Of a stretch of 64,000 nt of DNA, positions 24,901-28,460 are shown piece after piece. The notes below the pieces were generated by a model. The model did not search any database. It had not been told where the DNA came from and saw only the letters and a program-made list of their open reading frames with translations. Each line of letters opens with the position of its first letter. Within the stretch, counting starts at the first letter, position 1. This DNA is from Lyophyllum atratum (lineage: Eukaryota > Basidiomycota > Agaricomycetes > Agaricales > Lyophyllaceae): assembly GCA_014905825.1 (NCBI GenBank), contig JACGCN010000002.1, positions 62,001 to 126,000 of the forward strand, read 5' to 3'. The position numbers and the translations under genes are program-made.

Positions 24901-27900
24901 TCACGACTGTATCCGATTCCGGCGGCTGCTCAGCGCAGCGCGGAAATCATCCATCTCCACCTGAAGCAACTCCAGCAGCTCCGGATCGACGTCAGGCCTA
25001 TTCAAATCCACCAAATGCATATGCATCCGAATCTGCTGCATCGCAGCCTCGAAACACAGCGCCGCTAGGTCAGCGCCGACGTATCCATGCGTCTCCTCCG
25101 CAATCTACACAGAAAACGCGGTTATGAATCATGATCATGGTCCTGGGGATACGCGCTGCCAGTACATACCTCTTGGAGATCGACGTCATCCGCCAACTTC
25201 ATCCTCTTGCACTGTATACGCAAGATCTCGAGACGCCCTGTGACGTCGGGGTTACCCATCCTTATCTCCTGATCAAAGCGCCCGAAGCGTCTTAGAGCCG
25301 GGTCGAGGGAGTTGGGTCGGCTAGTCGCGCCCACGACGACGAGGTTGGAACTCGGTAGGAGGTCGTCCATCAGAACGAGCAGCTGCGAGAGCACACCAGC
25401 AGCAGCTGCGCTTCCGTGGCTCTACAAGACTTCAGTGCCCCTGTTCACACACGTCAAAGAAGGATGGAGACTAGAACGTACAGACGCGATAGCATCAAAA
25501 TGCTCAATGAGGATGATAGCAGGCGCGTTCTTCTTGGCCGCCTCGAACGCCTTATTGAGGTCACGCTCGGCATCGAAGGAACTCCTCCTCAGGAGCTCGG
25601 GCCCGTTTAAGAGGAAAAAGAAGGCGCTGGTCTCGTTGGCCACTGCGCGGACGAGGAGCGACTTTCCTGTGCCGGAAGGACCGGATATCAGGACGCCGCG
25701 CGGGGGGCTGACACCCAGGGACAGGAAAAGCTGGACATGAGAGAGGGGGAGCTCGACAAGCTCGCGGATCTGGGATATCTGCTTGTTACATCCGCCGATG
25801 TCGTCGTAGCCGACGTGTGCAGGGTTGAACTCTTCGGATTCCCGCTCGAGGGCGTCGCCCTCTGCAAGGAAGGAAGAGTACAACGAGCAATCAGTGGAAA
25901 TGGGATAGGCGTGATAAGCGCATGGTACCCACCGGTGGATGATGGTGTCCTGTGCGATGATGCAGAGCTCCGCTGGGTCTGTCTCCATGACCTTGAATTC
26001 GGCAGTGCGGAGTTCACCGCGGACGACGAAGGTGTCACCCTTGCGCACTGGCCTGTATGCTAAAAGTGACATGAGCACTGTCAGGATCGGATGTATTGTA
26101 CGCTCTTACCCTCTAGAAAGTAAGGCTTGAGATAGAGGTCAAAGATGTTGCCACTGAGTCCCTCAATCGAGTCTTTGAATGGGCGAATGTGTACACGCTT
26201 GCCGTACTGGATATCTAGAAACTGCTGGACATTGACGAGGTCGCCAGGGCGGACGTGTAAGTTCTTTCGTACGACGCTGTTCATTTGGATGTGGCCGTCT
26301 TTGACGTCGTCTGAGTTCATGATAATGAGGGCGGTGTCGCGGTGCCTTTTCCCTCTGATGCGAACGTCATCACGGCGATTATTGGATACAGAGAGATAGG
26401 GAGTCCTTTGACATACCGTATAAGATATGTATCGCCTCTGTAGGCAGAGATCCGATCCATTGTAGTCTGGTTGAGGTATGCGACTAGCACATCTCGTGAA
26501 CGACATCCTAAAGCTCAAGAAAACACCCGTAACGCACCAGAGTTGTCATCCCATTCTGCCTCGTCAACTATGAGATCATTGAAACTAGGTAGATACACGA
26601 CGTTCAATAGGGATCCCAATATGCAATGCGAGATAAAGTACCGTCTCTTAAGACTCGGAATGGTAGAGCGATCATGGTGGCTAGGCCCGCTCAATGCAAA
26701 GCGGAAGTCATCCATCTCCACCCGAAGCAACTCAAGCAGCTCAGGATCGATGTCAGGACTGTTCAAGTTCACCAAGTCCATATGCAGCCGAATCTGCGAC
26801 ATCGCAGCCTTGAAACACAGCCCCGCAATATCAGCGCCGACATACCCATCAGTATCTACAGCGATCTACGTGGTTATGCATAAATTATGATCATGGTCTG
26901 GGAGATAGGGACTGCATACCTGTTCGAGATCGACATCATCCGCCAGCTTCATCTTCTTGGTGTGGATGCGCAGGATCTCGTAACGCCCTGTGGCGTCGGG
27001 GGCACCCATCCGTATCTCCTGATCGAAGCGCCCAAAGCATCTTAAAGCGGGGTCGAGGGAGTTGGGTCGACTAGTCACGCCCACGACGACGAGATTCGAC
27101 CTCGGTAGGAGGTCGTCCATCAGACCGAGCAACTGCGAGCACACACCAGTGGCAGCTGCGCTTCCCTGGGCCTACAAGACTTTAGTGTCCCCGCTCGTAC
27201 ATGTCAAAGACGGATAGGGACTGGGACGTACAGACGCGATAGCCTCAATGCGGTCGATGAGGATGATAGCAGGCGCGTTCTTCTTGGCCGCCTCGAACGC
27301 CTCACGGAGGTCCCGCTCGGCATCGAAGGGACTCCTCCTCAGGAGCTCGGGCCCGTTTAAGAGGAAAAAGAAGGCGCCGGTCTCGTTGGCCACTGCGCGG
27401 ACTATGAGCGACTTTCCTGAGCCGGAGGGACCGGATATCAGAACGCCGCGCGGGGGTCTGACGCCCAGGGACAGGAAAAGCTGGACATGAGAAAGGGGGA
27501 GCTCGACGAGCTCGCGGAGCTGGGTTACCTCCTTGCGTAATCCGCCGATGTCATCGTAGTCGAGGTCTGTGGGGTTGAACACGTCGGATTCCCGCTCGAG
27601 TGGGTCGCCGACTGGAAGGAAGGAGGAGTACCATGAGCAATCAGGGCAAATGGGATAGGTGTTATAAGCGCATGGCACACACCGCTGTGGATCATGGTGT
27701 CCTGCGCGACGATGCAGGACTCCGCTGGGTCTGTCTCAATGACCTTGAATTCGACGGAGCAATTTTCACCGCGGACGACGAAGGTGTCACCCATGCGCAC
27801 CGGCCTGTATGCTGAAAGTGACGTGAACACCGGCACATCGGATGTATCATACGCTCGTACCCTCAAGGAAGTAAGGCTTGAGATAGGTGTCGAAGACGTT

Positions 27901-28460
27901 GTCACCGAGTCCCTCGATCGAGTCTTTGAACGGGAGAATGTGCACGCGCTTGCCGTACGCGATGTCCACACTGCGTTGGACGTGGACCAAGTCGCCGCGC
28001 TTGACGTGTATGTTCTTGCGTGCGACACTGTTCATTCGGATGTGGCCCTCTTTGACGTCGTCTGAGCTTAAACAGATGAGGACGGTGTCGCGGCGTCTTT
28101 TCCCTCTGACACGAACGTCATCACTCGATGTTGAGAGACGGGGAGTCCTTCGACATACCGTATGACGAGCGTATCGCCTCTGAAGATAGAGATCCGACCC
28201 ATCGTAGTCTGGCTGAGGTATGCGACTGGCAGCCCCTCTGGTGAACGACATCCCACAGCTCAAGATTAAAACACCCCCAACGCACCAGAGTTGTCTTCTA
28301 TTTCTCCCCCGTCAACTATGAGATCATGGGGACTAGTTGGATACACGACGTTCAATAGGGATCTCGATACGCAATGCGAGATAGCGCACCGTTCCTGAAG
28401 CCTTTGGATGGCAGAGAGATCATGGTGGCTAGGCCCGGGAGCAGCATCACGGTGGGCCAT
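24901..28460 (-). CDS. Cdc48/p97-like protein with duplicated N-D1 modules, no D2
   Basis: Thirteen exons join in phase to about 950 residues: 28460-28286, 28225-28159, 28105-27861, 27811-27683, 27611-27232, 27171-26920, 26865-26538, 26483-26417, 26354-26110, 26059-25929, 25859-25482, 25421-25170 and 25104-24901. Each half repeats the Cdc48 N domain ([43 protein letters not shown]) and the D1 AAA domain (YDDIGG, P-loop GPSGSGKS or [48 protein letters not shown]). Exon 7 runs without a stop from the end of the first D1 ([10 protein letters not shown]) into the second N domain, so the two halves form one frame. The second half ends with a stop after [11 protein letters not shown]; no D2 follows. 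Walker B is IILIDR in unit 1 and IILIEH in unit 2 (normally ending DE). Sensor 1 is TSRP instead of TNRP. Unit 1 has ALRCFGRFD where Cdc48 has the Arg-finger [12 protein letters not shown] hydrolysis is therefore probably lost or weak (inference). Two separate genes are the alternative, but unit 1 would then lack a stop and unit 2 a usual start. Confidence 0.82.

What the first reader, a model, noticed from the sequence alone, without database searches (positions are those of the whole stretch)
24901..28460. One gene encodes a head-to-tail N-D1-N-D1 Cdc48-like protein without D2
Standard Cdc48/p97 is N-D1-D2. Here thirteen exons keep phase through two complete N+D1 modules, and exon 7 crosses the unit boundary with no stop. 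The second module resembles the first down to the same intron positions (six pairs match, one donor/acceptor is shifted) and about 45 identical bases in a row (25507-25551 against 27257-27301), so it arose by tandem duplication. The seam is at the codons for GPSHHD, present near the start of unit 1 and right after the first D1. I know of no described protein with this layout.
Basis: partly seen in the sequence, partly recalled or inferred. Interest (0 to 1): 0.9.

Follow-up and report, generated by a model that had tools for sequence, protein, structure and literature searches.

The report
Doubled, motorless Cdc48-like mushroom gene
A mushroom carries an extra copy of the protein-unfolding machine Cdc48 that lost its main motor half, lost key catalytic residues of the other half, and then doubled itself head to tail, so it probably binds Cdc48's partners rather than unfolding anything; the copy read here also has a 2-base defect that the copy on the other haplotype lacks.

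Summary
The N-D1-N-D1 architecture is real and is present on both haplotypes of this Lyophyllaceae-like mushroom (window = contig C64; other copy C82). (2) The 'shifted' splice site marks a 2-bp deletion in the window allele; the conserved junction would frameshift there and stop after 658 aa. The C82 allele is intact with ordinary splicing (913 aa, 101 kDa, predicted). (3) Both D1 domains look hydrolysis-dead: Walker-B Glu is Arg/His, sensor-1 Asn is Ser, one arginine finger is Cys, and the D1-D2 linker and D2 are absent. Of 52 invariant D1-core residues changed in both units, 40 carry the same replacement, so most loss predates the internal duplication. Coding is still constrained (dN/dS 0.48 between units, 0.26-0.31 between alleles). 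None of the 232 listed homologues has this layout. Best reading: a Cdc48 paralogue that became an ATP-binding, non-hydrolysing double-N scaffold or modulator of Cdc48 cofactors, perhaps now being lost. Expression and function are untested.

The parts
28390..28460 (-). exon 1 (unit 1 start, ATG at 28460)
28333..28389 (-).
28286..28332 (-). exon 2, 47 nt as in own Cdc48
28159..28225 (-). exon 3, 67 nt as in own Cdc48
27861..28105 (-). exon 4, 245 nt as in own Cdc48 (N domain)
27683..27811 (-). exon 5, 129 nt as in own Cdc48 (end of N domain)
27232..27611 (-). exon 6, D1 of unit 1: Walker A GPSGSGKS (27432-27409), Walker B IDR in place of IDE (Arg codon 27252-27250)
26920..27171 (-). exon 7, D1 of unit 1 (sensor-1 Asn to Ser; first arginine finger to Cys)
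26642..26865 (-). exon 8, crosses the seam: end of D1 unit 1 (FALS) directly joined to unit 2 start (GPSHHD, from 26688)
26585..26641 (-).
26538..26584 (-). exon 9, 47 nt
26417..26483 (-). exon 10, 67 nt
26110..26354 (-). exon 11, 245 nt (N domain of unit 2)
25929..26059 (-). exon 12 under the shifted-donor model; with the conserved junction it ends at 25933
25937..25938 (-). site of the 2-bp deletion of the window allele relative to the C82 haplotype (between these bases as aligned; placement within the short CA/AC run is ambiguous)
25482..25859 (-). exon 13 under the shifted-acceptor model (conserved acceptor gives start 25861); D1 of unit 2: Walker A GPSGTGKS (25682-25659), Walker B IEH in place of IDE (25505-25500)
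25170..25421 (-). exon 14, D1 of unit 2 (sensor-1 Asn to Ser; arginine fingers kept)
24901..25104 (-). exon 15, end of D1 unit 2 and stop (TGA here, TAG at the same place on C82); no D2 follows

Best explanation
Shown by sequence: a genomic (intron-keeping) duplicate of the N-D1 part of Cdc48, without D2, the D1-D2 linker and the C-terminal tail, lost most of its D1 catalytic signature and then duplicated itself in tandem to give one N-D1-N-D1 reading frame. The frame is intact (913 aa) on the C82 haplotype and carries a 2-bp deletion in the window haplotype. Inferred: the protein still binds nucleotide (P-loops kept) but cannot hydrolyse it or unfold substrates. Its two N domains still engage Cdc48 cofactors, and its D1s still pack into a ring (three tandem chains per six D1s, or mixed with the true Cdc48). 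It would thus act as an ATP-locked cofactor scaffold or decoy that modulates the genome's own Cdc48.
For: Architecture and intron correspondence with own Cdc48. Second haplotype. Catalytic loss: at positions invariant in at least 97% of 55 canonical sequences, residues changed in both units are 7 of 35 (first N half), 2 of 49 (second N half), 2 of 9 (linker), 52 of 155 (D1 core; 40 to the same residue) and 15 of 64 (D1 lid). They include, in p97 numbering, E305 (R/H) and N348 (S/S) and the stretch around the D1 pore loop; R359 is C in unit 1 only. P-loop GPSGxGKS kept. Constraint: dN/dS 0.48 between units, 0.31 and 0.26 between alleles (Fisher p 1.8e-6, 0.043, 1e-4). Neutral simulation since the duplication gives a mean of 8.2 stops and no stop in 1 of 500 runs; the C82 frame has none. 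Literature: p97 N-D1 is hexameric and D1 ATP binding, not hydrolysis, tunes Ufd1/Npl4 versus p47 recruitment (PMC3513293, passages). Adding the D1-D2 linker activates the N-D1 ATPase, and R359A in N-D1 abolishes hydrolysis (PMC4730245, passages). That loss of E305 blocks hydrolysis is recalled.
Against: No transcript, protein or binding data. R359A in p97 N-D1 also altered its hexameric state (PMC4730245, passage), so R359C in unit 1 may weaken ring packing. The first N half lost 7 of 35 invariant residues, and between units the N domain is less constrained than D1 (dN/dS 0.57 against 0.39), so cofactor binding by N is not what selection visibly protects most. The window allele is frameshifted under ordinary splicing. 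No orthologue was found that would show long-term maintenance.
Confidence: 0.5

Rival explanations
1. A dying duplicate: the gene kept some constraint for a while after duplication but is now being lost, and the window haplotype is already a broken allele.
For: 2-bp frameshift in one of two haplotypes; catalytic residues lost; no relative with this layout among the listed proteins; higher dN/dS between units (0.48) than against own Cdc48 (0.17-0.20); in the between-allele neutral simulation 128 of 500 runs also had no stop.
Against: C82 allele intact with all 14 introns GT-AG; allelic dN/dS 0.26-0.31; both alleles end at the same codon with different stop triplets.
Confidence: 0.35
2. Two genes or two transcripts, one per module, rather than one protein.
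For: Each module is complete, and p97 N-D1 alone forms hexamers (PMC3513293, passages).
Against: No stop or spacer at the seam: FALS is followed directly by GPSHHD inside one exon. The first Met after the seam lies about 40 residues into unit 2.
Confidence: 0.05
3. The window allele is full length after all, by retaining intron 12 (adds 23 codons in frame) or by the double-shifted splice.
For: Intron 12 is open in frame in the window allele and not in the C82 allele (frame change); GTACCA/GCAGAG also restores the frame.
Against: Donor GTACCA lacks the G at position 5 that 12 of the other 13 donors of the window model have; the acceptor would skip the first AG; no RNA data.
Confidence: 0.15
4. 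Assembly artefact: the duplication or the 2-bp deletion is not real.
For: The deletion sits in a short CACAC run, and reads were not available.
Against: For the duplication: the units differ at 16% of aligned bases and both haplotypes carry both. For the deletion: not tested.
Confidence: 0.08

Closest known systems
Cdc48 / p97 / VCP (canonical; this genome's own copies at C75 and C79)
   Same: N domain (both Pfam halves), D1 AAA domain with P-loop, corresponding introns, 63-66% protein identity over N-D1
   Different: no D2, no D1-D2 linker, no C-terminal tail; Walker-B Glu, sensor-1 Asn and the stretch around the D1 pore loop replaced; module present twice
p97 N-D1 truncates used in the laboratory (PDB 1E32 short form, 5DYI long form; PMC4730245, passages)
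   Same: N-D1 without D2; the short form also lacks the linker that activates the D1 ATPase
   Different: artificial single modules with the catalytic residues of p97; here natural, doubled and catalytically degenerate
Pex1/Pex6 D1 (degenerate AAA domain in the Cdc48 family; PMC5070193, passages)
   Same: a D1 whose Walker and arginine-finger motifs degenerated
   Different: Pex1/Pex6 are two-AAA-domain proteins with D2 (that D2 is the active ring and that the N domains differ is recalled)
Odd multi-domain Cdc48 entries among homologues (P0001 N-D1-D2-N-D1-D2 of Cordylochernes; P0002 N-N-D1-D2, named Albugo candida; P0027 N-D1-D2-D2 of Nelumbo)
   Same: extra N or D domains in a Cdc48-like protein
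   Different: all three keep D2; may be annotation fusions (not checked); not N-D1-N-D1

Membership tests
Cdc48/p97 | N domain (CDC48_N plus CDC48_2) | tested here: met
   both units of the C82 allele over Pfam cut-offs
Cdc48/p97 | D1 AAA domain with P-loop | tested here: met
   AAA 99 and 112 bits (C82 units); GPSGSGKS and GPSGTGKS
Cdc48/p97 | D2 AAA domain | tested here: not met
   a D2 query over the whole window finds only cross-matches to the two D1s and a weak match at 395-514 (E 0.007), outside the gene
Cdc48/p97 | Walker-B acidic pair DE in D1 | tested here: not met
   DR in unit 1, EH in unit 2; a D1 pattern matched 225 of 232 listed homologues and all 225 had DE
Cdc48/p97 | sensor-1 Asn and two arginine fingers in D1 | tested here: not met
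   Asn to Ser in both units; first finger Cys in unit 1, both kept in unit 2
Cdc48/p97 | D1-D2 linker and C-terminal tail | tested here: not met
   D1 is followed directly by GPSHHD (unit 1) or by eight residues and the stop (unit 2); own Cdc48 has both linker and tail
Cdc48/p97 | descent from Cdc48 | tested here: met
   corresponding introns and exon lengths; in a tree of 59 rows the four unit rows form one clade on a long branch, its place within the family unresolved (midpoint root)
Cdc48/p97 | hexameric ring, ATP-driven unfolding | not testable with these tools
   needs protein
Pex1/Pex6 | degenerate D1 together with a D2 | tested here: not met
   no D2
Cdc48-like of PMC5070193 | groups with that clade | not tested
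   its sequences were not fetched

The most novel reading that the evidence does not exclude
A natural, constrained, double-N Cdc48 pseudo-ATPase: three tandem chains form a D1-only ring locked in the ATP state (or cap mixed Cdc48 rings) and hold or sequester Ufd1-Npl4/UBX cofactors, acting as an evolved dominant-negative regulator of the cell's own Cdc48 in this mushroom lineage.
Probability: 0.2. Interest if true: 0.75.

Novelty: new variant of a known kind. Interest (0 to 1): 0.52.

Why it matters
Cdc48 was found in every eukaryotic genome of one family survey (PMC5070193, section 13), and its domain order is nearly fixed: 229 of 232 listed homologues are N-D1-D2. A natural D2-less, linker-less, hydrolysis-dead, doubled N-D1 protein under coding constraint would show that the N-D1 half can have a life of its own. 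It would also offer a ready-made test of whether D1 ATP binding alone, without hydrolysis, is enough to hold cofactors. If it is instead a dying duplicate, it still shows how far a Cdc48 copy can decay while its frame stays open.

Tried and rejected
D2 remnant: a D2 query over the whole window gave only cross-matches to the two D1s and a weak match at 395-514 (E 0.007); the full-length query matched 395-589 weakly, inside a 152-aa ORF (362-820) next to the TIP49-like ORF at 860-1717; not followed. Orthologues: three protein searches, the cap. each scored about 8000 candidates (7995 and 7997) and listed the best 120, so a weaker relative below the list could be missed. Among the 232 distinct proteins listed in those two calls none has the N-D1-N-D1 order, and none of the 225 with a recognisable D1 Walker B departs from DE (looser survey). 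(a neighbour gene) placed the genome near Lyophyllum shimeji (68% identity). Gene conversion from the long identical runs: not supported (41 of 2000 shuffles reach the longest run). Placing the duplicate on the Cdc48 tree: it sits on a long branch and was not placed within the fungi (of the listed proteins P0003-P0060 I used 54 of 58, leaving out P0027 and three over 900 aa).

Literature: seven searches of the open-licence PMC library (20 of 55, 20 of 67, 5 of 5, 10 of 10, 10 of 63, 7 of 7 and 10 of 89 papers listed). In one search the term N-D1-N-D1 had no occurrence in the 7 papers listed. No title or abstract start that I saw describes such a protein. Most subscription-journal papers are outside this library. 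Papers seen: PMC5070193 (passages and section 13), PMC3513293 (passages), PMC4730245 (passages); the others as search listings only.

Full report
Where it is. The window is contig C64:62001-126000 of a 64.8-Mb, 151-contig assembly. The assembly appears to hold two haplotypes: this gene and another AAA gene recur in the same order on C64 and C82, and the true Cdc48 recurs on C75 and C79. A neighbouring 488-aa ORF is closest, after the genome's own entry, to Lyophyllum shimeji (68%), then Asterophora, Hypsizygus and Tephrocybe, all of the family Lyophyllaceae. The N-D1 part of the genome's own Cdc48 matches that of Tephrocybe sp. at every compared column, apart from extra residues in the latter (97.7% by BLAST over 469 positions). 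The organism is therefore a Lyophyllaceae-like mushroom; the species was not established.

Gene model. The gene runs on the minus strand from 28460 to 24901. I rebuilt it against the genome's own Cdc48. Internal exon lengths of the own Cdc48 N-D1 part are 47, 67, 245, 129, 392 and 249 nt. The units have 47, 67, 245, 129, 380 and 252 (unit 2 of the window allele 131 and 378, because of the shifted junction). Seven introns per unit correspond to those of the own Cdc48: six at the same aligned position and phase, and one inside D1 whose upstream exon is 12 nt shorter and downstream exon 3 nt longer. Removing them restores the Cdc48 alignment (RPHDLIVD and RFNDLIVD against SPNRLIVD). The unit 2 donor GTACTT is weak, and there is no RNA, so splicing there is inferred. 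This makes 15 exons. The seam lies inside exon 8, where the end of D1 (FALS) runs straight into GPSHHD. The first Met after the seam is about 40 residues into the second unit, so a separate second protein is unlikely.

The window allele is damaged. Lifted over to C82:84018-80454, the gene reads as one 913-aa, 101-kDa protein with all 14 introns GT-AG, and the unit 2 N/D1 junction (HT-EGD) is the same as in the own Cdc48. The window allele lacks two bases near 25937/25938 relative to C82. With the conserved junction it goes out of frame and stops after 658 aa. Only a double shift of donor and acceptor, or retention of intron 12, keeps it open. I could not check reads, so a sequencing error is not excluded.

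The D1 domains have lost catalytic residues. I compared the units (window unit 1, C82 unit 2) with 55 canonical sequences (54 listed homologues plus the own Cdc48) at positions where at least 97% of them agree. Changed in both units: 7 of 35 in the first N half, 2 of 49 in the second N half, 2 of 9 in the linker, 52 of 155 in the D1 core and 15 of 64 in the D1 lid. Changed in one unit only: 7, 5, 4, 13 and 9. Of the 52, 40 changed to the same residue, so most losses predate the internal duplication. In p97 numbering (fragment number plus one, consistent with K251, E305 and R359 as named in PMC4730245), E305 is Arg or His, D304 is Glu in unit 2, N348 is Ser in both, and R359 is Cys in unit 1. 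The stretch SKMAGESESN around the D1 pore loop reads [10 protein letters not shown] in unit 1 and [10 protein letters not shown] in unit 2. The P-loop stays GPSGxGKS. D2, the D1-D2 linker and the C-terminal tail are absent. Motif names (Walker, sensor 1, pore loop) are partly recalled. Identity to the own Cdc48 over N-D1 is 63-66%, between units 77%.

Is it constrained? Nei-Gojobori estimates: units against each other dS about 0.29, dN 0.14, ratio 0.48; alleles 0.31 (unit 1) and 0.26 (unit 2); units against own Cdc48 0.17-0.20 with dS about 1.4, near saturation. Fisher tests: p 1.8e-6 between units, 1e-4 (unit 2) and 0.043 (unit 1) between alleles. Under neutral change since the internal duplication (kappa 2 assumed) a mean of 8.2 stops is expected and 1 of 500 runs had none; the C82 frame has none. 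The two alleles end at the same codon with different stop triplets. Against my functional reading: between units the N domain is less constrained (0.57) than D1 (0.39), allelic ratios by domain are uneven and rest on few changes (unit 1 N 0.15, D1 0.41; unit 2 N 0.54, D1 0.16), and the short between-allele interval does not by itself exclude neutrality (128 of 500 simulated runs had no stop).

Relatives. Two searches of 5.8 billion proteins (best 120 listed in each, 232 distinct) gave 229 N-D1-D2 proteins and three odd ones: N-D1-D2-N-D1-D2, N-N-D1-D2 and N-D1-D2-D2. None is N-D1-N-D1. A D1 Walker-B pattern matched 225 of the 232, and all 225 read DE. Annotated proteins of several Lyophyllaceae are in the collection, because the neighbour search finds them. 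The gene is thus either lineage-specific, unannotated elsewhere, or below the listing limit.

How it most likely works (inferred). p97 N-D1 alone forms hexamers, and ATP binding to D1, not hydrolysis, favours Ufd1/Npl4 over p47 (PMC3513293, passages). The D1-D2 linker is what activates ATP hydrolysis in N-D1, and R359A there abolishes it while altering the hexameric state (PMC4730245, passages). A protein with P-loops but no Walker-B Glu, no sensor-1 Asn, no linker and no D2 should bind ATP and stay there. Two N domains per chain would then make it a cofactor-holding scaffold or decoy rather than an unfoldase. The R359 result cuts both ways, since R359C in unit 1 might also loosen the ring. 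The main rival is a duplicate on its way out, for which the window allele is direct evidence.

Novelty. By descent it is a Cdc48 paralogue; by tested features it is not a working Cdc48. The layout, in a catalytically degenerate form under coding constraint, is a new variant of a known kind as far as the 232 listed proteins and the seven paper searches go.

Noticed in passing
28860-29846: A roughly 1-kb insertion with 43-nt imperfect terminal inverted repeats, about 400 bp upstream of the start codon, with GTCGATG near both ends; the C82 haplotype has the empty site. The genome holds five other long copies at 80-98% identity (one split in two) and many matches to its ends (lower bounds).
   Followed up: partly
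24901-28460: Haplotype divergence is uneven along the gene: unit 1 dS 0.019, unit 2 dS 0.066; 13 of 141 bases differ just downstream against 5 of 230 just upstream. It may mark a recombination or conversion boundary inside the gene.
   Followed up: no
860-1717: TIP49 (RuvB-like) P-loop ORF on the + strand.
   Followed up: no
35703-36257: cis-prenyltransferase-like ORF (Pfam Prenyltransf) on the + strand.
   Followed up: no
7289-8266: Match to the N-terminal domain of the NOL9 kinase, just under the Pfam cut-off (26.9 of 27 bits).
   Followed up: no
outside the window: proteins P0001, P0002, P0027: Annotated Cdc48 homologues with N-D1-D2-N-D1-D2 (Cordylochernes), N-N-D1-D2 (named Albugo candida) and N-D1-D2-D2 (Nelumbo) order; could be annotation fusions.
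   Followed up: no
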